Assembly (NCBI RefSeq): GCF_019798055.1
Contig: NZ_JAHOPH010000010.1
Location: 1-64,000 of the forward strand
Reading direction: 5' to 3'
Source of the DNA: Salsipaludibacter albus
GTDB lineage: Bacteria > Actinomycetota > Nitriliruptoria > Nitriliruptorales > Nitriliruptoraceae
DNA length: 64,000 nt
The notes beneath the pieces are model-generated. The model made no database searches, was not told where the DNA came from, and saw only the letters and a list, made by a program, of their open reading frames with translations. Both the position numbers and the translations under genes were made by a program. Positions 2,658 to 56,492 of the stretch are shown piece by piece (position 1 is the stretch's first letter; the number at the start of each line of letters is the position of its first letter).

Positions 2658-3842
2658 TCAGCGGATCGGTTCGGCGCGGAAGGCGTCCCGCCAGGTCATC
2701 CGGCCCCCGGACAGGACGGCGGCCGAGTAGAGCCGGCCGGCCAGCCGCACCCCCAGCCAGGTGCCCAGCCCGGTCAGCACCGCGCCGACCACGACCTCCC
2801 ACACGGGCACGCCGGCGGCCGCACGGGCAGGCAGCGCGAACGGTGCACTGAGCGGGATGAAGCTCAGCACCTGGGCGAGGGTCCCGTCCGGGTTCGGGAC
2901 CACGCCGATGATCACGGTCCCGTACACCGCGGCGGCCACGAACCCGATCGGCCCGGCCGACGACTGCGCCTCCTCGGCGGAGGTGGCCAGCGAGCCGGCG
3001 ACGGCGTAGATCGCGCCCCACAGGCCGAAGCCCAGCAGGAACATCACGAGCGAGGTGACCACGACCATCGGCGAGCCGTCCGGCAGGGAGACGTCCCCGG
3101 TCAGCGAGAACGCGCCCAGCCCCGCGACCGCGTACAGCACCAGCTGGCCGACCGAGAGCAGGGTCATGGCCAGCAGCTTGCCGGACAGCATCTGCCACGG
3201 TCGCACGGTCGCCAGGAGCACCTCGACCACGCGGCTGGACTTCTCCTCCACGGTGGTCGTCAGCAGGGACGCACCGTTGATCTGGAGGGTGAGGAACAGC
3301 AGGATCGTGACGATGAAGCCCAGGCCGAGCGCCGTCTCGCGGGTCTGCTCGTCCTGGCCGTCGGGCGTGACGACCACCAGGTCGGGGTCCAGGAGGTCCA
3401 GCCCGCTCGGGTCCACGCCGGCCTCCTCGAGCGCGTCGGCGAGCCCGGCCGTCGCCAACGACTGCTCGATGGCGCGCTCCAGGCCACCCGGCAGGTCGTC
3501 GGCCAGCACGGTCTGGTCGTCGAGCACCACGGCGTCGAGGTCACCGTCGGTGATGGCCGTGTCGGCGTCGGCGCGGTCGTCCACCTCGGACACGGTGACC
3601 TCGGCGTCACTGGCGTCGCCGATGGTCACCAGGGTGTCGTCGAAGCCGTCGGGGAGGGCGGCACCGGCCAGCACGCCGACGTCCCACGTGGTGGGCCCGT
3701 CGTCGTCGAACAGCCCCGGCACGACGATGATCGCCACGATCGCCAGCACGCTGATGGCGGTGGTCACCAGGAAGGCGCGGTTGCCGAGGCGGTCGCCCAT
3801 CTCGCGGCGGACGACCAGGGCGATGACGTCGCGCGGCCTCAT
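2658..3842 (-). CDS. ABC-2 type exporter permease (NatB-like)
   Basis: Membrane subunit of an ABC-2 exporter, 394 residues. The first helix is at residues 23-42 (FLVTTAISVLAIVAIIVVPG). It is followed by a large acidic extracytoplasmic domain (about 45-170) and then five to six helices, the layout of the ABC-2_trans_3/NatB family, which pairs with NatA-type ATPases for export of Na+ or undetermined compounds. Segment VEEKSSRVVEVLLATVRPWQMLSGKLLAM is the conserved cytoplasmic coupling region. Its ATG overlaps the stop of the upstream ATPase gene by 4 nt (ATGA), so the two are translationally coupled. The substrate is unknown. It converges on the AEC transporter gene with only 24 nt between stops and no clear hairpin. 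Confidence 0.92.
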   Translation of the reverse strand: MRPRDVIALVVRREMGDRLGNRAFLVTTAISVLAIVAIIVVPGLFDDDGPTTWDVGVLAGAALPDGFDDTLVTIGDASDAEVTVSEVDDRADADTAITDGDLDAVVLDDQTVLADDLPGGLERAIEQSLATAGLADALEEAGVDPSGLDLLDPDLVVVTPDGQDEQTRETALGLGFIVTILLFLTLQINGASLLTTTVEEKSSRVVEVLLATVRPWQMLSGKLLAMTLLSVGQLVLYAVAGLGAFSLTGDVSLPDGSPMVVVTSLVMFLLGFGLWGAIYAVAGSLATSAEEAQSSAGPIGFVAAAVYGTVIIGVVPNPDGTLAQVLSFIPLSAPFALPARAAAGVPVWEVVVGAVLTGLGTWLGVRLAGRLYSAAVLSGGRMTWRDAFRAEPIR

Positions 3843-4837
3843 GCCTGCTCCTCGGCGTGGGTGGCCTCGACCTCGGCGACCGACATGCCGACGACGTCGC
3901 GGAACACCTCGGACAGGCTCGGCGGCTCGAACGAGAACCGTTCCAGCCGTCCGTGGCGCCGCACCGCCTCCATGACCGCGTCCGGCTGCACCCTGGTGTC
4001 CACGCGCAGCACACCCTGTCCGTCGCGGCCGGGCTCGACCGGCCAGCCGCGGGTGCCGGCGAGGTCGACCGTCGTGGCCTCGTCGGCATCGTGGGCCCCG
4101 GCGTCCACGGCCGCCGGGGCGACGACCCGGTCGGGGAGGTCGTCCTCGGCCAGTCGGAAGGTGACCGTGCGGGTCCCCGTCGACGAGCGCACCTCGTCCA
4201 GCGTGCCCGCCAGGCGGTCCCGGCCGTGGGCCACGATGACCACGTCGTCGACCAGGTCCTCGACCAGGTCGAGCTGGTGGCTGGAGAAGACCACCGTCGC
4301 GCCGTCCGCGGCGCGCCGGACCAGCACGTCACTCATCGCCGCGACGCCCAGGGGGTCCAGGCCCGAGAACGGCTCGTCGAGCACCAGCAGGTCCGGGTCG
4401 TGGACCAGGGCGGCGGCGAGCTGGACCCGCTGCTGGTTGCCGTGCGACAACGACGACACCGGGTCGTCGTGACGGTCGCCGAGCCCGAGCCGGTCGAGCC
4501 AGGACCGGGCGGCCTCGGTCGCCGTCGCGCGGGTCAGGCCGTGGAGCTGGGCGATGAAGACCAGTTGGCGCTCGGCGGTCATGCGTGGGTAGAGCCCTCG
4601 TTGTTCCGGCATGTAGCCGAACCGCAGTCGGCGACGTGCCGTGATCGCCTCGTCGTCGAACCGGACCTCGCCCCGGTCCAGTTCGACCAGGCCGAAGATC
4701 GATCGCATCGACGTGGTCTTGCCCGCGCCGTTGGGCCCGAGGAACCCCAGGATGCGTCCGGGGGAGGCGGACAGGGACAGGCCGTCGAGCGCCCGGACCT
4801 CGCCGTAGCGCTTGTGCAGGTCGTCGAGTCGCAGCAT
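3839..4837 (-). CDS. ABC exporter ATP-binding protein (NatA-like)
   Basis: ATPase subunit that energises the permease encoded just downstream. Of 332 residues, the first 230 are the nucleotide-binding domain: Walker A GPNGAGKTT (about 35-43), Q-loop MPEQRGLYP, an LSHGNQQRVQLA signature (degenerate form of LSGGQ, typical of NatA), Walker B LLVLDEPFSGLD, and switch His in VVFSSHQLD. The remaining 100 residues match the DUF4162-type C-terminal domain of drug/Na+ exporters (EPPSLSEVFRDVVG near the end). ATG at 4837 has AGGA 9 nt upstream. It is the first gene of a two-gene operon. Confidence 0.95.
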   Translation of the reverse strand: MLRLDDLHKRYGEVRALDGLSLSASPGRILGFLGPNGAGKTTSMRSIFGLVELDRGEVRFDDEAITARRRLRFGYMPEQRGLYPRMTAERQLVFIAQLHGLTRATATEAARSWLDRLGLGDRHDDPVSSLSHGNQQRVQLAAALVHDPDLLVLDEPFSGLDPLGVAAMSDVLVRRAADGATVVFSSHQLDLVEDLVDDVVIVAHGRDRLAGTLDEVRSSTGTRTVTFRLAEDDLPDRVVAPAAVDAGAHDADEATTVDLAGTRGWPVEPGRDGQGVLRVDTRVQPDAVMEAVRRHGRLERFSFEPPSLSEVFRDVVGMSVAEVEATHAEEQA

Positions 4838-45978: not shown

Positions 45979-46028
45979 GTCGAGTGTGCTCTTCGCGGCC
46001 ACCCAGGGCCGTGATCCGCACACTCGAC
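45979..46028. repeat. 50-bp palindromic element, copy A
   Basis: Arms GTCGAGTGTGC (45979-45989) and its exact complement (46018-46028) enclose a 28-nt core with its own CGGCC/GGCCG stem. It lies 12 nt after the glgE stop, between convergent genes. 44 of 50 positions match copy B at 49295. Confidence 0.9.
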
Positions 46029-49133: not shown

Positions 49134-49294
49134 GGTGGGGCTCCATTTCCTGGACCGGGTCGCGCCCGCCACGTCGTGCGCGTCGGGGAGCGGGGGAACG
49201 CCGACTCGCTGCCGACGCCGGGTCCCGATCGGAAGGAGGATGGTGCCGACCCGCGGCGGCCCCGGTCGACCGTTCGGGGGGGACCGGCAAGGCC

Positions 49295-49344
49295 GTCGAG
49301 TGTGCTCCTCGCGGCCACGGGCGGCCGGGATCCGCACACTCGAC
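49295..49344. repeat. 50-bp palindromic element, copy B
   Basis: Same 11-bp arms as copy A (49295-49305 and 49334-49344) and the same core layout, differing at six core positions. It is placed between the 3' end of the DrrB-like permease gene and the 5' end of the acyl-CoA-dehydrogenase-like gene. Confidence 0.9.
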
Positions 49345-49373
49345 GGGGGGTTCGGGGTCGGGAGGGGTCGGGG

Positions 49374-50162
49374 TCAGGTGGGGTCGCGGTGGAAGAGGTG
49401 GCGGGCCCACCGCCAGCTGGCGACGGTGATCACCAGGCACCACGCGACGGCGACGACGCCCTGCCAGCCGATCGCGGTGCCCAGCAGCAGGCCACGCACG
49501 GTCTCGATGATCGGCGTGAAGGGCTGGTACTCGGCGAACCAGCGCAGCCCGGTGGGCAGCGACTCGGTCGGGACGAACCCACTGCCGAGGAACGGCAGCA
49601 GCACCAACGGCATCGCCAGGTTGCTGGCGGTCTCGACGCTGTCGGCGACCAGCCCGAGGGCGACCGCGAACCAGATCAGCGCGAACGTCGCGAGTGCGAG
49701 CAGGCCGGCCGTGACCAGCCACTCGACGGGGGTTGCCGTCGGGCTGAAGCCCAGGAGCAGGGCGATCCCGACCAGGACGGCCATCCCCACCATGGCCTGG
49801 GCCACGTTGGCGAGGACGTGCCCGGCCAGCACCGAGGACCGGGCGATGGCCATGGTCCGGAACCGGTCCATGATCCCGGCGGTCCGGTCGATGGCCACCG
49901 TGACGGGCGTGACCGACGTGGCACTGGCGATCGTCAGCACGAGCATGCCGGGGACCAGGTAGTCGAGGTAGTCGTCGCGACCCGCGCCGGGGCCGGCCAG
50001 GCCGGCCCCGAGCGTGTCGCCGAGCACGTACACGAACAGCAGCAGGAAGACGATCGGCAACCCGACCGTGACCGAGGGGCCGACCGGGTAGCGCAGCGTG
50101 CGGCGGAACTCGCGACGCAGCATCGTGGAGGTGTCGCGGAGCGCGAACGTGGTGGTGGTCAT
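49374..50162 (-). CDS. ABC-2 exporter permease (DrrB-like)
   Basis: A 262-residue ABC-2 permease with six helices. Residues 13-25 (TMLRREFRRTLRYP) form the cytoplasmic amphipathic start, then VTVGLPIVFLLLFVYVL. The conserved coupling/signature region is AIDRTAGIMDRFRTMAIARSSVLAGHVLANV, as in daunorubicin-resistance permease DrrB, followed by FVPTESLPTGLRWFAEYQPFTPIIETVRGLL. Its ATG overlaps the ATPase stop (ATGA). It is the last gene of an RHH-DUF4097-ATPase-permease operon. Probably lipid- or drug-like substrate export. Confidence 0.94.
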   Translation of the reverse strand: MTTTTFALRDTSTMLRREFRRTLRYPVGPSVTVGLPIVFLLLFVYVLGDTLGAGLAGPGAGRDDYLDYLVPGMLVLTIASATSVTPVTVAIDRTAGIMDRFRTMAIARSSVLAGHVLANVAQAMVGMAVLVGIALLLGFSPTATPVEWLVTAGLLALATFALIWFAVALGLVADSVETASNLAMPLVLLPFLGSGFVPTESLPTGLRWFAEYQPFTPIIETVRGLLLGTAIGWQGVVAVAWCLVITVASWRWARHLFHRDPT

Positions 50163-51229
50163 CGGACGGCCTCCGGTGCGGTGGCGTGGTCGGGGTCGGC
50201 CCGGCCGGTGCCGGTCGCGCCCTCCGGGTCGGCCGCGTCGTGGTCGGTGCCTCGGCCGGTCAGGGCCAGGAAGACGTCGTCGAGGTCGGGTCGGTGGACC
50301 GACAGGTGCTCGACGTCCAGCCGGTCCCGGTCGATCCGGTCCAGGAGTGCCCGCAGCGAGTCGGGGCTGCCGTCGCCGGGCACCTGGAGGGTCAGCGAGC
50401 GGTCGTCACGCCCGACCACGCGCCCGTCGTCGCGCCACGTGGCGGCCGCGGTGTCCAACTGGACCGTGGAGGGGAACTGCAGCCGCACGTGGCCGCCCGG
50501 GACACGTCGCTTGAGCTCGTCGACGGTGCCGTCGGCCACGATCGTCCCGCGGTCGAGGACGGCCACCCGATCGGCGAGTCGGTCGGCCTCCTCGAGGTAC
50601 TGGGTGGTGAGGAAGACGGTGGTGCCGTCATCGACGAGCTCGGTGACGGCCTCCCACATCGTGCGGCGGCTGCGGGGGTCCAGCCCGGTGGTCGGCTCGT
50701 CGAGGAAGATCACCTGCGGGTCGCCCACCAGGGTCATGGCGAGGTCGAGTCGGCGGCGCATGCCGCCGGAGTACGTCGTGGCGGGTCGGTCGGCCGCGTC
50801 CACGAGGTCGAAGCGTTCCAGCAGCTCGGACACGCGCCGGGACCCCTCGAGCCGGTCGAGGTGGTGCAGGTCGGCCATCAGGCGCAGGTTCTCGGCGCCC
50901 GTGAAGAGGTCGTCGATGGCCGAGAACTGGCCGGTGACGCCGATGGACCGGCGCACGAGGTCGGGTTCGGTGGCGACGTCGTGTCCGGCGACCCGGACCG
51001 TGCCGCCATGGGCGTCCACCAGGGTCGTCAGGATGTTGACGACCGTCGTCTTGCCGGCCCCGTTCGGGCCGAGCAGGGCGAACACCGTGCCGGGCGTGAC
51101 CGTGAGGTCCACCCCGTCCAGGACCAGCAGGTCGCCGTATGAGCGCCGCAGTCCGGTGACCTCGATCGCGGGCGCGACCCGGCCGGGTGTCGTCGTGGGG
51201 TCGGTGGTGGCAGCTCGGAGGTCACGCAT
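50159..51229 (-). CDS. ABC exporter ATPase (DrrA-like)
   Basis: A 356-residue ATP-binding subunit. Walker A GPNGAGKTT (about 53-61), Q-loop GVTGQFSAID, signature YSGGMRRRLDLA, Walker B VIFLDEPTTGLD, switch FLTTQYLEEAD: the DrrA pattern. The C-terminal DUF4162-type domain ends in SVHRPDLDDVFLALTGRG. ATG 51229 overlaps the end of the DUF4097 gene by 8 nt. It pairs with the permease downstream. Confidence 0.95.
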   Translation of the reverse strand: MRDLRAATTDPTTTPGRVAPAIEVTGLRRSYGDLLVLDGVDLTVTPGTVFALLGPNGAGKTTVVNILTTLVDAHGGTVRVAGHDVATEPDLVRRSIGVTGQFSAIDDLFTGAENLRLMADLHHLDRLEGSRRVSELLERFDLVDAADRPATTYSGGMRRRLDLAMTLVGDPQVIFLDEPTTGLDPRSRRTMWEAVTELVDDGTTVFLTTQYLEEADRLADRVAVLDRGTIVADGTVDELKRRVPGGHVRLQFPSTVQLDTAAATWRDDGRVVGRDDRSLTLQVPGDGSPDSLRALLDRIDRDRLDVEHLSVHRPDLDDVFLALTGRGTDHDAADPEGATGTGRADPDHATAPEAVR

Positions 51230-52103
51230 GGTCGACCGCCCGGGGACGACGCACGAGGACCTGGCCCAGGGTGGTGCGGGCGCGGACCTCGACCCGGGCG
51301 CCGTCCTCGGTCGGGGCGTCGGCCGCGGCCAGGTCATTGCGGACGGTCCCGGCCGTGGCGTCCAGGTCGAGCCATGCCGCGGTTCCCACGGGGATCCCGA
51401 CCTCGACGTCGCCCACGTGGGTCTCGAGCACGACGTTGCCAGAGGCGACCTCGTCGACGACCACGTCCCCGTTGGCCGACTTCGCCACGATGCTGCCCGT
51501 GGCGACACCGACCTCGATCGGTCCGTTGGCGGCCTTGACCCGCAGGTGGCCGTCGACGCGCCCGAGCCGGGTCGCGCCGTTGGAGTTGCGCACCACCGCG
51601 TCGCCCGTGACCGAGGCCAGCTCGACCCGTCCGGACGCCGTCGTGACGTCGGCTCCACCGGTGACCCGATCGACCATGATGCCACCGGCACCGCTCTTGC
51701 AGTCCAGGGCGTCCGTGGCCTCGAGCCGGATCGACCCGAGCCCGGTCCGGATGCGGCAGTTGCCGAGCCGCCCGGTCGCGTCGACGTCGCCGGACCCCGC
51801 GCTCAGCTCGAGCGCGGAGCCCTCCGGCAGGTCGATCGTGACGTCGATCGACCCGCCCCAGCCTCGCCGGACCCACGAGCGGACCAGCGGCAGGCCCTGG
51901 CGGTCGGGGCCACGCACGACCAGTTGGTCGCCGTCGAGCTCGACCGTGGTCCGTGCGGCCGCGTCGACGTCGTCGGGCTCGGACGGGTCGCTGGGACGGA
52001 CCTCCACCGTCGTCGTGGTGGACTGCCCGGCATGCAGGTGCAGGGCGCCCAGGCCGAGGTCGATGCGGGCCCGGACCGGCCCCGTGGTGTCGAAGGTGGT
52101 CAT
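51222..52103 (-). CDS. DUF4097-family beta-helix protein
   Basis: A 293-residue protein of the DUF4097/DUF4098 putative-adhesin family. After an N-terminal beta domain, short repeats predict a right-handed beta-helix: ELSAGSGDVDATG, IRTGLGSIRLEA, CKSGAGGIMVDRVTGGADVTTASGRVELASVTGDAVVRNSNGATRLGRV, VKAANGPIEVGVATGSIVAKSANGDVVVD. No signal peptide is present. Such proteins often accompany ABC exporters and small regulators in actinobacteria; the role is unknown. ATG 52103 has AGGAG 8 nt upstream. An alternative ATG at 52130 overlaps the stop of the upstream gene as ATGA. Confidence 0.9.
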   Translation of the reverse strand: MTTFDTTGPVRARIDLGLGALHLHAGQSTTTTVEVRPSDPSEPDDVDAAARTTVELDGDQLVVRGPDRQGLPLVRSWVRRGWGGSIDVTIDLPEGSALELSAGSGDVDATGRLGNCRIRTGLGSIRLEATDALDCKSGAGGIMVDRVTGGADVTTASGRVELASVTGDAVVRNSNGATRLGRVDGHLRVKAANGPIEVGVATGSIVAKSANGDVVVDEVASGNVVLETHVGDVEVGIPVGTAAWLDLDATAGTVRNDLAAADAPTEDGARVEVRARTTLGQVLVRRPRAVDHA

Positions 52104-52126
52104 GAGGACGTGCTCCTGTGTGGTGG

Positions 52127-52630
52127 TCATCGGGCCCATCCCGTCCACGACTGGCCGACCCGGCCGCCGCGAGGTCGCGGGCCGGAGTCGACGTCGTCGG
52201 GCGAGAGCGCGGCCGCGACCAGGCGGACGAGCCAGGCGTTGATCGAGACGTGCTCGGCGTTGGCCGCCTGCTCGATGCCGGTCTTGAGGTGCTCGGGCAG
52301 ACGCAGGTTGATGCGCGCGGTGCCCTCGCCCTCCTCGGGCTCGGGTGGCGGCGGGAGGCTGCTGCGCGGAGCGGCCGGTTCGTCGGCCGGTGGCAGGGTC
52401 ACCACCAGTTCGGCGTCGCCGCCACGCAGGCGGACGTCCACGGAGCCGGGCGCGAGTTCGCGAGTGATCTCGTCGGCGGCCGTGGACAGCGCCTCGAGAA
52501 GGGTCAGTCGCAGGGGGGACTCAAGGGCGGCGACCAACCGGTCGATGGCCGGTTGGTCGTCTGCCCCGGCGCCGTCGGCGAGCACGGCGAGCTGGTGTCG
52601 GAGGTGGTCGACATGCGGGGTGAGGTCCAT
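52127..52630 (-). CDS. Ribbon-helix-helix (HicB/CopG-like) DNA-binding protein
   Basis: A 167-residue protein. The C-terminal part has a ribbon-helix-helix motif (ARINLRLPEHLKTGIEQAANAEHVSINAWLVRLVAAAL, about 105-142). The N-terminal 100 residues are helical then beta and may sense a ligand or partner. It is annotated in many actinobacteria as HicB-like antitoxin, but no toxin gene is adjacent. It lies first in an operon with DUF4097 and a DrrAB-like exporter, so a transcriptional regulator of that operon is more likely. The promoter carries a 13-bp inverted repeat and the mRNA looks leaderless. Confidence 0.88.
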   Translation of the reverse strand: MDLTPHVDHLRHQLAVLADGAGADDQPAIDRLVAALESPLRLTLLEALSTAADEITRELAPGSVDVRLRGGDAELVVTLPPADEPAAPRSSLPPPPEPEEGEGTARINLRLPEHLKTGIEQAANAEHVSINAWLVRLVAAALSPDDVDSGPRPRGGRVGQSWTGWAR

Positions 52631-52637
52631 GCGGCAC

Positions 52638-52679
52638 AGTATGGCATCACTTTGGCACCATTGCAAGTGCCACAGTGAT
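52638..52679 (-). promoter_or_regulatory. Leaderless promoter and operator of the RHH-DUF4097-exporter operon
   Basis: On the minus strand, -35 TTGCAA (52661-52666), 17-bp spacer, -10 CATACT (52638-52643), then 7 nt to the A of ATG 52630: transcription should start at or next to the start codon, with no SD. An inverted repeat (arms 52646-52658 and 52667-52679, one mismatch, ATCACT..GGCAC type) covers the spacer and -35 box, where a bound repressor would block RNA polymerase. Confidence 0.65.
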
Positions 52680-52810
52680 CCCAGCGGACGAGGGCCCTGC
52701 CGGCGTCGGCCTGCAGGCGTCCAGGATCGCGGGACTCGGGCGAGCACAGGATGGAGGTCAGGAGGCCCGGGCTCGCCACCGACAGGCACCGCGAGGGCCG
52801 CTGGGAGGAG

Positions 52811-53039: not shown

Positions 53040-53088
53040 TTGACGGCGACTGAACGCATGTTTAGGATGCTGAACATGAGTTCAGCAT
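53040..53088 (+). promoter_or_regulatory. Consensus promoter with operator centred on the TetR start codon
   Basis: -35 TTGACG (53040-53045), 17-bp spacer, -10 TAGGAT (53063-53068), then 7 nt to the A of ATG 53076: the mRNA should be leaderless. A perfect palindrome, arms ATGCTGAAC (53067-53075) and GTTCAGCAT (53080-53088) with 4-nt centre ATGA, begins inside the -10 box and has the start codon at its middle. TetR binding here would block its own transcription start. Confidence 0.75.
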
Positions 53089-53837
53089 CTGCCTCTGCGA
53101 CACGGTCCGACCGGTCCGACCCGGGCGCCGGGGATCCGGCCGGTCCCGCCTCGACGGGCACGGACGAGGACCGGACCGCCCGCGCCCGGATCCGCGATGC
53201 CGCGCTGCACCTGTTCGGGGAACGGGGGGTCAAGGCCACGACGGTCCGTGCCATCGCCCGGGACGCCGGGGTGTCGCCGGCCCTGGTCGTGCACCACTTC
53301 GGCTCCAAGCAGGGGCTGCGCGACGCGGTCGACGAGTACGTCCTGGCCGAGATCCGGGCGGGCAAGTACGCCGCCATGACCGAGGGGATGGCGCCGACCG
53401 ACACCGCCTACGAGGACCTGGCCCGCGACAAGGCGTCGGAGATGGCCTACCTCGTCCGGGCACTGACCGACGACAGCGAGGTCGGTCGCCAGCTCTACCA
53501 GCGCCTGTTCGACGACGCGGTCGACTACCTCGCCGCCGGGATGGAGGCCGGCGTGCTGCACCCGAGCGACGACCCGGAGGCGCATGCCGCGGTCCTGCTC
53601 AATGCCGGCCTCGCCCAGATGCTGCTCCAGCCCCACACGCAGCGTGCCCTGGGCGCCGACGACCACGTCGACATGCTGATGCGGATCGCGCCGGTGATGC
53701 TCGACCTCTACACCGACGGCCTGTTCACCGACGACCGGTTCCGGGTCGCGTGGCGGACCGAGGCCGACCACGCGGCCCGCACGACGGATCCGGACCCGCC
53801 GCAGACGCCAGCCCCCCACTCCCCACGCGTCGAGTGA
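53076..53837 (+). CDS. TetR-family regulator
   Basis: A 253-residue regulator. After a Ser/Ala/Asp-rich N-terminal tail of about 35 residues, the HTH lies at about 38-85 (RIRDAALHLFGERGVKATTVRAIARDAGVSPALVVHHFGSKQGLRDAV). The ligand domain extends to about 225, with a Pro-rich tail. ATG 53076 is preferred over an in-frame TTG at 53040 because that TTG belongs to a near-consensus -35 box. It probably controls itself and the ABC exporter downstream. The last codons and stop lie inside palindromic element C. Confidence 0.94.
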   Translation: MSSASASATRSDRSDPGAGDPAGPASTGTDEDRTARARIRDAALHLFGERGVKATTVRAIARDAGVSPALVVHHFGSKQGLRDAVDEYVLAEIRAGKYAAMTEGMAPTDTAYEDLARDKASEMAYLVRALTDDSEVGRQLYQRLFDDAVDYLAAGMEAGVLHPSDDPEAHAAVLLNAGLAQMLLQPHTQRALGADDHVDMLMRIAPVMLDLYTDGLFTDDRFRVAWRTEADHAARTTDPDPPQTPAPHSPRVE

Positions 53838-53878
53838 GCCGATCCCTCCAGCGGGCTGGAACGGGGCGCACACTCGAC
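53829..53878. repeat. 50-bp palindromic element, copy C (divergent core)
   Basis: Arms GTCGAGTG (53829-53836) and its complement (53871-53878) give exactly the same overall length as copies A and B. The core differs and has its own TCCAG/CTGGA stem. The TetR stop codon is in the left arm, and the exporter ATPase starts 20 nt past the right arm. Confidence 0.75.
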
Positions 53879-53898
53879 CCGACGTGACAGGCACCGTC

Positions 53899-54837
53899 AT
53901 GACCAGCACGACCCACCCGGCGATCCACACGACCGGGCTGACCAAGCACTACGACGACGTCCCGGCCCTGGTCGACCTCGACCTCGAGGTCCGCCGCGGC
54001 GAGGTGTTCGGCTTCCTGGGCCCCAACGGGGCGGGCAAGACCACCACGATCCGCACCCTCCTCGACCTGATCCGACCGACCGCCGGCTCGGCGTCGATCC
54101 TCGGCCTGGACACCCGTGCCGACGCGGTCGAGATCCGCCGCCACATCGGCTACCTGCCGTCGGACCTGGCGATGTATCCCAACCTGACCGGCAAGGACCT
54201 GCTGACCTACTTCGCGAACCTGCGCGGTGGGGTCGACTGGGGCCACGTCGACGCCCTGGCCACGCGTCTCAAGGCCGACCTGGGCAAGAAGGTCGGCGAC
54301 CTGTCCAGCGGGAACCGCCAGAAGGTCGGGATCATCCAGGCCTTCATGAGCCGGCCCGACCTGGTCCTCATGGACGAGCCCAGCACCGGCCTGGACCCGC
54401 TGGTCCAGCAGGAGTTCCAGACCATGATGCGGGAGGTCGCCGACGACGGGCGGTCGGTGTTCCTGTCCAGCCACACGCTGTCGGAGGTCCAGCGGGTCGC
54501 CGACCGGGTCGGGATCATCCGCCAGGGCCGCCTGGTCGACGTCGAGGGTGTCCACGACCTGCGCTCCAAGGCGATCCGTCGGGTCGAGTTGGTCTTCGAC
54601 GCCCCGGTGACGGCCGAGGAGTTCGCCGGCGTCGCCGGCGTTCGCGACACCCAGGTGCGCGACAACGCGATCATGCTGTCCTTCGACGGGCACATGGAGG
54701 AGTTGCTCGCCGTGGCGACCGGGCGCCACCACCTCGTGGACATCAACAGCGAGGAGGCCGACCTCGAGGAGATCTTCCTGGCCTACTACCGCGAGGACGC
54801 CGTCGATGGGGAGTCCCGCGAGGAGGCGATGGCCTGA
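53899..54837 (+). CDS. ABC exporter ATPase
   Basis: A 312-residue ATPase. Walker A GPNGAGKTT, Q-loop-like YLPSDLAMYPNLTGKDLL, signature LSSGNRQKVGIIQAF (degenerate LSGGQ), Walker B LVLMDEPSTGLDP, switch FLSSHTLSEVQ; C-terminal domain ends with SEEADLEEIFLAYYRED. ATG 53899 is chosen over an in-frame GTG 15 nt upstream. The stop overlaps the permease ATG by 1 nt (TGATG). Together with the preceding TetR gene it forms a regulator-exporter unit; substrate unknown. Confidence 0.94.
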   Translation: MTSTTHPAIHTTGLTKHYDDVPALVDLDLEVRRGEVFGFLGPNGAGKTTTIRTLLDLIRPTAGSASILGLDTRADAVEIRRHIGYLPSDLAMYPNLTGKDLLTYFANLRGGVDWGHVDALATRLKADLGKKVGDLSSGNRQKVGIIQAFMSRPDLVLMDEPSTGLDPLVQQEFQTMMREVADDGRSVFLSSHTLSEVQRVADRVGIIRQGRLVDVEGVHDLRSKAIRRVELVFDAPVTAEEFAGVAGVRDTQVRDNAIMLSFDGHMEELLAVATGRHHLVDINSEEADLEEIFLAYYREDAVDGESREEAMA

Positions 54838-56492
54838 TGCTCCTGTCGTCGATCTTCGCCAAGTCCGTCCGCGACCGCTGGACCGGCGAGCTGGTCGCCG
54901 GGATCGCCATGGCAGTGCTGCTGTGGATGACCATGGCCATCTACGCCGACTTCGACGTGTCCTTCTACTACGACCTGCCCGAGGCCGCCCAGCAGCTGGC
55001 CGGGATCGACCCGGCCGTCGGGGGACTGGCCGGGCTCGCCTACGGGTCGATCTACAACCTGCTCGGGGCACTGACCCTGGCCGGGATCGCGATCTCGATC
55101 GGGGCGAGCGGCGTCGCCGGCGAGGAGCGTGACGGGACGATCAGCCTGCTGTTGGGCAACCCGCGCAGCCGCAGCCGGCTCCTGGGGGCCAAGACGACGG
55201 CCATGGTCGTCCTGAGCGTGTTCGGCCTGGTGCTGCTGTGGATCGGTGGCCTCGCGTCGCCCGCCGTCCTGGACCAGGACGTCAGCGGGGTGAACCTGGT
55301 GGCCCTGCTCGTGCACCTGGGGGCCAACGCCGTCCTGTGGGGCCTGCTGGCCACCGCCATCGGGGCCTGGACGGGCAACCGCACGGCCGCGTCCGGCGCC
55401 GCGGCTGGCCTGATGGTCGGTTCCTACCTGGCCGCGTCGATCGTGCCGCTGTTCCCCGACGTCGCCGACTGGGCCGCCGTGTCCCCGTGGTACTGGTTCT
55501 CGGGTGCCAACCCCGCGGCCAACGGCATCGACGCTGGCTACCTCGCGCTCCAGTTGGGGACGGCCGCGTTGCTGGCGGCAGTTGCCTTCGTCGGCGTCAA
55601 CCGACGAGACCTGCGGGAGCGACGGGGGCGCACGACCCTGGTCGACCGCTTGCGCAGCCACCCGATGACCCAGCGCTACGCCGACCGCGTCGCGGGGTCG
55701 GCCCGGGTGTCGTCCCTGGTCGCCAAGGCGTCGTCGGACCACCAGGCGCTGCTGGTCGTGGTCGGTGGCATCGTGGCGATGCTCGGCCTGTACTACGGAC
55801 CGATGTACAACCTCATCCCGGAGGCCTTCGCCGACGCGATGAACCAGTTCCCCGATGCCCTGATGTCGATGATCGGCCAGGCAGACATCTCCACGGGTGC
55901 GGGTTGGCTGCAGGCCGAGTTGTTCTCGCTGGTCGTGCCGATCGGGTTCATCACGGTCCTGGTCAGCGTGGGCGCCAAGTCGCTGGCCGGCGAGGAGGCG
56001 GACCGCACGATGGGGTTGCTGCTCGCCAACCCGGTGTCGCGCTCCCGGGTGCTGTTCGCCAAGGCAGCCGTGCTCGTGCTGTACGCGGTCGCGCTGGTGG
56101 TCATCGCGTCGATCGGCGCACTTGCCGGGGCGCTGCTCGGGGGGCTGGACGTGTCGCTGCCGAACGTCGTCGTCACCATGTCCCTCGGCGGCCTGCTGGG
56201 GCTGGTCATGGGTGCCGTGGCGTTCCTGGTCGGCGCCGCGACGGGCCGGGTCCGGTGGGCGACGTCCACGGCCACCGGCGTGGCCCTGCTGGCCTACTTC
56301 GCCTGGTCGTTCCTGCCCCTGTCGCAGGACCTGGCGGGGTGGGCCGACTGGTCCCCGTTCGACTGGTACCTGGGCAGCGACCCGCTGCTGACCGGGGTCG
56401 ACTGGACCGACGTCGGGCTGTTCGTCGTGACGATCACGATCCTGGTCGTGCTCGCCGTGCCCATGTTCGCCCGACGCGACCTTCGTGGTTGA
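54837..56492 (+). CDS. ABC exporter permease with two homologous halves
   Basis: A 551-residue ABC-2-type permease with about 12 helices. It contains two copies of the same cytoplasmic motif, GEERDGTISLLLGNPRSRSRLLGAK (about 98-122) and GEEADRTMGLLLANPVSRSRVLFAK (about 384-408), each after a helix and before another, so the protein is an internal duplication equivalent to a permease dimer in one chain. FDVSFYYDLPEAAQQLAG and YNLIPEAFADAMNQFPDALMSM are corresponding extracytoplasmic segments. Coupled to the ATPase gene; the AraC gene begins 3 nt after its stop. Confidence 0.94.
   Translation: MLLSSIFAKSVRDRWTGELVAGIAMAVLLWMTMAIYADFDVSFYYDLPEAAQQLAGIDPAVGGLAGLAYGSIYNLLGALTLAGIAISIGASGVAGEERDGTISLLLGNPRSRSRLLGAKTTAMVVLSVFGLVLLWIGGLASPAVLDQDVSGVNLVALLVHLGANAVLWGLLATAIGAWTGNRTAASGAAAGLMVGSYLAASIVPLFPDVADWAAVSPWYWFSGANPAANGIDAGYLALQLGTAALLAAVAFVGVNRRDLRERRGRTTLVDRLRSHPMTQRYADRVAGSARVSSLVAKASSDHQALLVVVGGIVAMLGLYYGPMYNLIPEAFADAMNQFPDALMSMIGQADISTGAGWLQAELFSLVVPIGFITVLVSVGAKSLAGEEADRTMGLLLANPVSRSRVLFAKAAVLVLYAVALVVIASIGALAGALLGGLDVSLPNVVVTMSLGGLLGLVMGAVAFLVGAATGRVRWATSTATGVALLAYFAWSFLPLSQDLAGWADWSPFDWYLGSDPLLTGVDWTDVGLFVVTITILVVLAVPMFARRDLRG

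What the first reader, a model, noticed from the sequence alone, without database searches (positions are those of the whole stretch)
49374..52679. RHH regulator, DUF4097 protein and DrrAB-like exporter in one leaderless operon
Four overlapping or adjacent genes begin with a ribbon-helix-helix protein usually labelled as an antitoxin, yet no toxin exists here. The promoter is leaderless and carries an inverted repeat over the -35/spacer. This suggests that the HicB-like label is wrong for this family and that it is an exporter regulator, with DUF4097 as an uncharacterised third component.
Basis: partly seen in the sequence, partly recalled or inferred. Interest (0 to 1): 0.5.

Follow-up and report, generated by a model that had tools for sequence, protein, structure and literature searches.

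The report
Self-regulating exporter operon with DUF4097 partner
A small DNA-binding protein that databases sometimes call an antitoxin appears instead to be the private switch of its own operon, together with a beta-helix partner protein and often a drug-type exporter, and its DNA target and a possible docking tail can be read from many related genomes.

Summary
The four genes, leaderless promoter and inverted repeat are real. In 286 distinct loci, mostly actinobacterial, the gene after this RHH is nearly always DUF4097/Toastrack. The repeat is one view of a conserved operator: 8-bp boxes TGRYRYCA about 11 bp apart, typically at -29, -18 and -7, the last ending in the A of the ATG. A tandem pair lies in -70..+3 of 212 of 286 loci (at most 1 in shuffles) and the spaced pair occurs once in the window's genome, here. 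Box position 3/6 follows the central residue of the RHH strand: Asn with G (499/608 half-sites), Thr/Ser with A (253 G of 1020), which ties the RHH to the boxes, though few switches sit on well-supported branches. No toxin gene was found beside it, and HicA is never near this RHH in 30 genomes. A C-terminal tail accompanies DUF4097 (263/272) and is missing where that gene is absent or fused (0/9), so DUF4097 is probably the RHH's docking partner. Exporter genes follow in 57 of 96 loci with room. The gene set was already mentioned in one published sentence; operator, base pattern and tail were not found in ten literature searches. Nothing is tested at the bench.

The parts
52127..52630 (-). RHH regulator, 167 aa: N-terminal helical hairpin plus beta-hairpin, variable linker, Arc-like RHH (about 104-142), C-terminal tail
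   Evidence: Pfam hits with E below 0.1 all lie at 104-143 and all are below curated cut-offs; AF2 model mean pLDDT 77.8; Foldseek aligns the RHH part to Arc 1bdv, rmsd 1.3 over 41 columns, E 1.1, prob 0.97; start matches the family start
52295..52315 (-). codons of the DNA-recognition beta-strand R106-I-N108-L-R110-L-P
   Evidence: R106 and R110 invariant in the 37 rows of A2; residue 108 co-varies with operator base
52130..52156 (-). codons of the conserved C-terminal tail GQSWTGWAR
   Evidence: tail pattern in 263 of 272 loci with DUF4097 adjacent, 0 of 9 without a separate DUF4097 gene
52676..52683 (-). upstream operator box TGGGATCA (-53), one mismatch to TGRYRYCA
   Evidence: position; exact boxes start at -50, -51 or -52 in many relatives
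52653..52660 (-). operator box 1, TGGTGCCA (-30)
   Evidence: exact match; spaced pair unique in the 4.25-Mb genome
52642..52649 (-). operator box 2, TGATGCCA (-19)
   Evidence: exact match; same unique site
52631..52638 (-). degenerate third box, TGTGCCGC (-8); in many relatives this box is good and ends in the A of the ATG
   Evidence: sequence; family profile
52661..52666 (-). -35 element TTGCAA, in the centre of the inverted repeat and just before box 1
52638..52643 (-). -10 element CATACT, spanning the end of box 2, the 3-bp gap and the first base of box 3
51222..52103 (-). DUF4097/Toastrack protein (alternative start 52130); no hydrophobic segment, so probably cytoplasmic
   Evidence: PF13349 44.9 bits, cut-off 22.9; hydropathy; an AF2 model of a relative gives a beta-helix-like run of strands and Foldseek finds Toastrack structures for it
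50159..51229 (-). DrrA-type ABC ATPase
   Evidence: TIGR01188 330 bits, cut-off 312.45
49374..50162 (-). ABC-2 membrane protein, DrrB-like in context only
   Evidence: PF01061 83.2 bits, cut-off 26.9; below the DrrB cut-offs; 5 hydrophobic segments
49295..49344 (.). 50-bp palindromic hairpin behind the operon, possible transcript end
   Evidence: one of 28 perfect copies in the genome; RNA fold z -4.75

Best explanation
The RHH protein is a dedicated autorepressor of its own operon. Its dimers sit side by side on 8-bp boxes about 11 bp (one DNA turn) apart, covering the promoter from the -35 to the leaderless start codon, so bound repressor excludes RNA polymerase. Each beta-strand reads half a box: R106 is placed to read the conserved G at position 2, and residue 108 sets the base at position 3 (Asn: G, Thr/Ser: A). 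The flexible C-terminal tail ending in TGW.R docks as an extra strand on the cytoplasmic beta-helix protein DUF4097, made from the same transcript. DUF4097 thereby modulates the repressor in response to an envelope or exporter-linked signal; the DrrA-type ABC exporter, where present, is the output. Shown by sequence comparison: the operator, its register with the start codon, its near-uniqueness in the genomes searched, the residue-base pattern, the adjacency with DUF4097 and the tail association. Inferred: binding itself, repression as the sign of control, which residue reads which base, tail-DUF4097 binding, the direction of DUF4097's effect, the signal and the exported substrate.
For: Tandem boxes in -70..+3 of 212 of 286 distinct loci; 20 dinucleotide shuffles of the 288-locus set gave mean 0.05 and maximum 1, and other 73-bp stretches of the same loci 37 of 21319. 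210 of 286 loci are in the -18/-7 register with up to two mismatches per box, 209 of them with ATG, with -35 and -10 inside the array. The exact spaced pair occurs once in the window's genome, at this promoter; reversed control 0. In 30 other genomes it occurs at 51 sites against 4 for the reversed control; 47 lie at RHH starts found earlier, two more proved to be RHH starts, one lies at another leaderless-looking start and one is a TGGTACCA repeat. Residue 108 and box position 3/6: Asn 499 G of 608 half-sites, Thr 178/788, Ser 75/232, Ala 0/6. On best trees, in the median of 300 random pairings, all 11 (RHH tree) and all 12 (DUF4097 tree) independent pairs have more G in the Asn member; as a yes/no trait 7 of 11 and 8 of 12 pairs differ, none the wrong way. 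DUF4097 directly downstream in 272 of 281 loci that can be judged. Tail pattern in 263 of 272 with DUF4097, 0 of 9 without a separate DUF4097 gene. L135 is a single-gene fusion of RHH and DUF4097. In an AF2 model of relative L142's RHH read through into its DUF4097, the tail (161-168) is a strand, block pLDDT 68 between neighbouring blocks of 34-45; in the window RHH alone the tail is below 50 and without a strand.
Against: No binding or expression data. On strongly supported branches only 3-4 independent Asn versus Thr/Ser pairs remain (on average 1.8 the same way, 0.0 the other, the rest no difference), too few for significance. 74 of 286 loci lack an exact tandem pair; ten distant relatives (L122-L127, L129-L131, L133) have no exact box within 120 bp of the start. 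Two of the 30 genomes, G289 and G097, have no exact spaced pair although they hold this RHH, and their RHHs are the nearest to the window's in the tree. In the window itself box 3 is degenerate. Nine loci with DUF4097 lack the tail pattern, and the pattern was defined after looking at the data. The two AF2 models are of different proteins, the read-through one is a single chain with a short linker, which favours contact, and no coordinates or inter-domain error were available. Fusion L228 may be a frameshift.
Confidence: 0.7

Rival explanations
1. DUF4097 serves the exporter (an adaptor or regulator of the ATPase/permease at the membrane) and does not touch the RHH; the RHH merely represses the operon.
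For: 57 of 96 loci with room carry the exporter behind DUF4097. A Toastrack-ABC association with another regulator type (GntR) is described in PMC11237479 section 27 (passages).
Against: 33 of 96 loci have RHH+DUF4097 without such an exporter directly downstream; in 23 of 34 exporter-less loci listed the longest nearby ORF is on the other strand. The tail association and the RHH-DUF4097 fusion point to the RHH. L078 keeps the exporter but lacks DUF4097 and the tail together.
Confidence: 0.2
2. The RHH is a true HicB-type antitoxin whose toxin is elsewhere or unrecognised.
For: PF05534 HicB is the best Pfam hit, 19.9 bits, just under its cut-off of 21; 7 of 40 listed plasmid homologues carry the label.
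Against: The hit covers only the RHH core (106-136). The N-terminal part is predicted as a helical hairpin plus beta-hairpin, and its sequence is unlike the real HicB L139 that turned up by chance. HicA: 0 copies in the window's genome, one each in 4 of 30 genomes, none near the RHH. Neighbours of the relatives were not scanned for other toxin families.
Confidence: 0.03
3. The Asn/G versus Thr-Ser/A pattern is inherited by descent and not a recognition rule; the RHH still binds the boxes.
For: Many Asn loci are Streptomyces; on starred branches only 3-4 independent pairs exist.
Against: On the best trees the independent pairs go the same way, 11 of 11 and 12 of 12 in the median pairing; the Actinomadura/Actinoallomurus switch (Asn, G-type versus Ser, A-type) sits on starred branches.
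Confidence: 0.2
4. The RHH activates, or both activates and represses, the operon, or another protein also binds the boxes.
For: Extra boxes lie upstream at about -50 and beyond in many loci, and some RHH proteins are described as both activator and repressor (AmrZ, PMC3325190: start of abstract seen in the listing).
Against: The core boxes overlap -35, -10 and +1, a position typical of repression (general knowledge).
Confidence: 0.1

Closest known systems
Actinobacterial RHH-Toastrack-ABC ATPase-permease operon noted by the PSP/Toastrack survey (PMC11237479, section 27; passages read)
   Same: Same gene content; those authors also propose that Toastrack contexts couple transcriptional regulation, membrane-proximal sensing and transport.
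   Different: They speak of a membrane-anchored Toastrack protein for the related GntR operon; the window's DUF4097 has no hydrophobic segment. The word 'operator' is absent from the main text, and the passages read give no specificity pattern, docking tail or exporter-less form; their supplementary text could not be read.
Arc repressor of phage P22 (PDB 1bdv, 1par)
   Same: RHH fold; strand pattern polar-x-N-x-R and side-by-side dimers about 11 bp apart (these Arc details are recalled, from no call).
   Different: Extra N-terminal domain and C-terminal tail; three or more boxes over a leaderless promoter.
MetJ methionine repressor
   Same: 8-bp pseudo-palindromic boxes of very similar sequence (AGACGTCT, with strand contacts to G2 and A3; recalled, one search found no paper and none listed was opened).
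   Different: MetJ boxes abut at 8 bp (recalled); no relation beyond the RHH was tested.
HicAB toxin-antitoxin
   Same: Generic RHH domain.
   Different: No HicA nearby, no HicB-type N-terminal domain, neighbour is DUF4097.
RHH antitoxins with a disordered toxin-binding tail (e.g. ParD, AtaR)
   Same: Layout: RHH for DNA and a flexible C-terminal tail for a co-encoded partner (ParD2: start of abstract seen; AtaT-AtaR-DNA entry; the rest recalled).
   Different: The co-encoded partner is a Toastrack beta-helix, not a toxin; the output is often an exporter.
lun cluster of Streptomyces lunaelactis (PMC9866976, Table 1 passages read)
   Same: Lun1 (177 aa, 'Unknown') next to Lun2 DUF4097; Lun25-27 are permease, DrrA-type ATPase and another DUF4097. 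Plasmid hit H21 in S. lunaelactis is a relative of the RHH and also spans 177 codons; that it is Lun1 itself is an inference.
   Different: There the exporter genes lie apart from the Lun1-Lun2 pair, and no function is proposed for Lun1 or Lun2.

Membership tests
HicB antitoxin / HicAB | HicA toxin gene adjacent | tested here: not met
   0 HicA in the window's genome; 4 of 30 genomes have one, none near the RHH
HicB antitoxin / HicAB | HicB-type N-terminal domain (partial RNase H-like fold, recalled) | tested here: not met
   AF2: helical hairpin plus beta-hairpin; no entry titled HicB among the 50 Foldseek rows shown of 180; sequence unlike true HicB L139
HicB antitoxin / HicAB | Pfam PF05534 above its cut-off | tested here: not met
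   19.9 bits against 21; the fusion L135 does pass, 22.7 bits, so this feature alone says little
RHH DNA-binding superfamily, Arc-like | strand-helix-helix with R-x-polar-x-R strand and S-x-N helix start | tested here: met
   invariant R106, R110, S129, N131 in 37 rows; alignment to Arc at rmsd 1.3 over 41 columns, though the Foldseek E-value is 1.1
RHH DNA-binding superfamily, Arc-like | binds its own promoter | not testable with these tools
   supported indirectly by boxes and co-variation
DUF4097/Toastrack (PF13349) | profile score above cut-off and beta-helix fold | tested here: met
   44.9 bits against 22.9; fold seen in a relative's model only, with 4qrk and 4opw among its Foldseek hits
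DrrA family (TIGR01188) | score above cut-off | tested here: met
   330 against 312.45 bits
DrrB family (TIGR01247, TIGR00025) | score above cut-off | tested here: not met
   63.3 against 223.05 and 64 against 146.9 bits; ABC-2 PF01061 is met
RHH-Toastrack-ABC operon of PMC11237479 | RHH, Toastrack, ABC ATPase and permease in one operon in Actinobacteria | tested here: met
   gene order here and in 57 of 96 loci with room; their own example loci were not seen

The most novel reading that the evidence does not exclude
This widespread RHH family uses the layout of a toxin-antitoxin antitoxin (DNA-binding RHH plus a disordered partner-binding tail) with a cytoplasmic Toastrack beta-helix in place of the toxin: DUF4097, made from the same message, takes the RHH tail as an extra strand and so sets how firmly the repressor array holds the leaderless promoter, turning an addiction-type circuit into an envelope or exporter sensor with a readable one-residue DNA code.
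Probability: 0.35. Interest if true: 0.72.

Novelty: new variant of a known kind. Interest (0 to 1): 0.56.

Why it matters
The family occurs in 58 of 396 sampled genomes of the phylum and in more than half of sampled genomes of two orders that were picked because they held it (156 of 249 and 134 of 245). It often stands before exporters and, by inference, in the lun antibiotic cluster. A clear operator, a testable base code and a candidate docking peptide make an uncharacterised and sometimes mislabelled regulator directly testable, and suggest what one kind of DUF4097 protein does: hold a repressor's tail. It also corrects an antitoxin label that can inflate toxin-antitoxin counts.

Tried and rejected
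Considered a hidden toxin beside the genes: the upstream ORF has no Pfam match and HicA is unlinked; relatives' neighbours were not scanned for other toxin families. Considered the inverted repeat alone as proof: rejected, since 3 of 526 other stretches of the window do as well. Considered anti-phage defence: no PADLOC hit for RHH, DUF4097 or permease; the ATPase gives 35 hits, which look like generic ATPase matches. A first pattern search used the wrong spacer length and missed the repeat; corrected. Looked for one gene type replacing the exporter in exporter-less loci: 34 next ORFs listed, 30 of them scanned; no family matches more than 3 of 30. First trees on 96-101 loci gave 5-6 switches; enlarged to 231-240 rows, which still hold two pairs of identical loci found later. 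Literature searches; only PMC11237479 holds both 'ribbon-helix-helix' and 'Toastrack'. Two papers were opened, by passages only. No paper on the operator was found in these searches; subscription journals are mostly not held.

Rows dropped: 24 locus records before (records of the same place, two unrelated hits L003 and L009, the true HicB L139 and the unrelated RHH L140); two identical loci; L137 and L138 (fragmentary ORFs) left out of the tail and neighbour counts; 28 loci with a tied base fraction (23 Thr/Ser, 5 Asn) and loci without exact boxes left out of the tree tests. Loci were chosen by RHH similarity, so fractions with DUF4097 or exporter are not population estimates.
Full report
WHAT IS THERE. 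The window lies in a 4.25-Mb, high-GC genome of 79 contigs. On the minus strand an RHH gene (52630-52127), a DUF4097 gene (to 51222), a DrrA-type ATPase (51229-50159) and an ABC-2 permease (50162-49374) follow each other. The RHH ATG sits 7 bp behind a CATACT -10 that is 17 bp from TTGCAA, and a 17+8+17 inverted repeat covers this promoter. The repeat alone is not extraordinary: 3 of 526 other stretches in the window have one as good.

RELATIVES. A family-level search finds a match in 7 of 35 genomes at E <= 0.001, though at least one of these (L009) is not an RHH. A phylum sample gives 58 of 396 genomes, and two orders, picked because they held the RHH, give 156 of 249 and 134 of 245. A scan of named genomes gave 72 loci, from Streptomyces, Kitasatospora, Kibdelosporangium, Rhodococcus, Frankia, Sinomonas, Actinoallomurus and others. 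With fetched stretches and after dropping duplicates and non-members, 286 distinct loci remain, the window included. DUF4097 follows directly in 272 of 281 that can be judged (3 are cut by a contig end, 2 are fragmentary). Of 96 loci with at least 3.3 kb downstream, 57 have DUF4097, ATPase and permease, 33 have DUF4097 and neither of the two directly downstream, and 6 are other arrangements. The loci were chosen by RHH similarity, so these are not population frequencies.

THE OPERATOR. Upstream DNA of most of these loci carries 8-bp boxes TGRYRYCA: 265 of 288 have at least one exact box in -70..+3. They peak at -29/-30, -18/-19 and -7, with further boxes near -50. A tandem pair 10-12 bp apart lies in -70..+3 of 212 of 286 loci. 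Twenty shuffles of the 288-locus set gave a mean of 0.05 and a maximum of 1; other 73-bp stretches in the same loci gave 37 of 21319. In 210 loci the boxes at -18 and -7 are in register (two mismatches allowed per box), 209 with ATG: the last box ends in the A of the start codon, the -35 sits just before the first box and the -10 bridges the second and third. The window fits: boxes at -30 and -19 are exact, one at -53 has one mismatch, and the third is degenerate. In the whole genome the spaced exact pair occurs once, here. In 30 other genomes it occurs 51 times, 49 of them at starts of this RHH family; the reversed pattern gives 4. Two of the 30, G289 and G097, have none although they hold the RHH, and these two RHHs are the nearest to the window's in the tree. 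In these genomes the RHH looks like a nearly private autoregulator.

PROTEIN-DNA CO-VARIATION. The strand reads R-x-N-x-R in the window and R-x-T/S-x-R in many relatives. With Asn, box position 3 (and its mirror 6) is G/C in 499 of 608 half-sites; with Thr 178 of 788; with Ser 75 of 232; with Ala 0 of 6. By locus, Asn: 95 above half, 5 tied, 2 below; Thr, Ser and Ala together: 6, 23 and 135. Phylogeny is a real concern. On well-supported branches only 3-4 independent pairs remain, on average 1.8 in the expected direction and 0.0 against, which cannot reach significance. Counting all branches of the best trees, in the median of 300 random pairings 11 of 11 (RHH tree without the strand) and 12 of 12 (DUF4097 tree) pairs have more G in the Asn member, sign test p about 0.001 and 0.0005; as a yes/no trait 7 of 11 and 8 of 12 differ, none the wrong way. 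I take this as good but not final evidence that this protein reads these boxes. It also agrees with what I recall of MetJ (Thr to A3) and Arc (11-bp dimer spacing); neither comes from a call.

NOT AN ANTITOXIN. HicB is the best Pfam hit but below cut-off and confined to the RHH core. The predicted N-terminal half is a helical hairpin and a beta-hairpin, with no significant Foldseek match (best E-value 0.45), and its sequence differs from a true HicB met by chance in L139. HicA is absent from the window's genome and unlinked in the 4 of 30 genomes that have it. Other toxin families were looked for only among the 13 window ORFs scanned. The label is in use but not general: 7 of 40 listed plasmid homologues.

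DUF4097 AS PARTNER. After a variable linker most of these RHH proteins end in a short conserved tail...G-x-x-F/Y-T-G-W-x-R in many. The tail pattern, defined after seeing the data, is present in 263 of 272 loci with DUF4097 next door and in 0 of 9 without a separate DUF4097 gene. Those nine comprise L078, L134, L136, four loci of one family (L290, L292, L294, L295) and two fusions (L135, L228), so perhaps five independent events; all seven unfused ones keep at least one exact box upstream. L135 is one protein of RHH plus Toastrack, while its same-genus relative L124 has two genes and a tail. L228 is also fused but may be a frameshift. AF2 leaves the tail of the window RHH disordered, whereas in a read-through model of a class relative (L142) the tail is a strand of moderate confidence beside a very confident beta-helix. 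I judge tail-DUF4097 docking likely (about 0.6) and its sign open.

KNOWN OR NEW. A 2024 survey states in one sentence that Actinobacteria have a similar Toastrack-ABC operon with an RHH factor (PMC11237479 section 27, passages read). The lunaemycin cluster table lists a 177-aa protein and a DUF4097 protein side by side as unknown (PMC9866976, passages read); that the first is this RHH is my inference. The gene set is thus known; the operator, the residue-base pattern, the tail and the exporter-less core were not found in the ten literature searches made.

CONFIDENCE. RHH binds these boxes and autoregulates: about 0.9. Repression: about 0.85. DUF4097 binds the RHH tail: about 0.6. DUF4097 relieves repression on an envelope or exporter signal: about 0.35. 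Substrate: unknown.

Noticed in passing
window 45979-46028, 49295-49344, and a one-mismatch copy at 53829-53878: A genome-wide family of 50-bp palindromes GTCGAGTGTGC-N28-GCACACTCGAC: 28 perfect copies in the 4.25-Mb genome, all 50 bp long though 28-62 was allowed, with an inner stem that varies but looks self-complementary by eye; reversed-pattern control 0; strong RNA hairpin at 49285-49350, z -4.75. One copy lies just behind the operon; possible terminator or REP-like element.
   Followed up: partly
window 53040-56492, plus strand: A second ABC exporter module, TetR regulator, ATPase and a 551-aa double ABC-2 permease, stands divergently next to this operon.
   Followed up: no
L135 (G241), minus strand 3539-4399: Natural single-gene fusion of the RHH with a shortened Toastrack domain; the same-genus relative L124 has two separate genes.
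   Followed up: partly
L290, L292, L294, L295: RHH relatives of one family with a long Gly/Arg/Pro-rich C-terminus in place of the tail, no DUF4097 gene found within reach, but operator boxes kept.
   Followed up: no
L312 (G420:C1:285441): Operator-type boxes in front of a leaderless-looking ATG that gave no RHH or DUF4097 match: a possible second target.
   Followed up: partly
L107 and L120 (G395); L152, L226, L227 (G420); L256-L258 (G613): Several genomes carry two or three copies of this RHH; in G395 and G420 the copies have different box sequences, a natural setting for testing orthogonal specificities.
   Followed up: no
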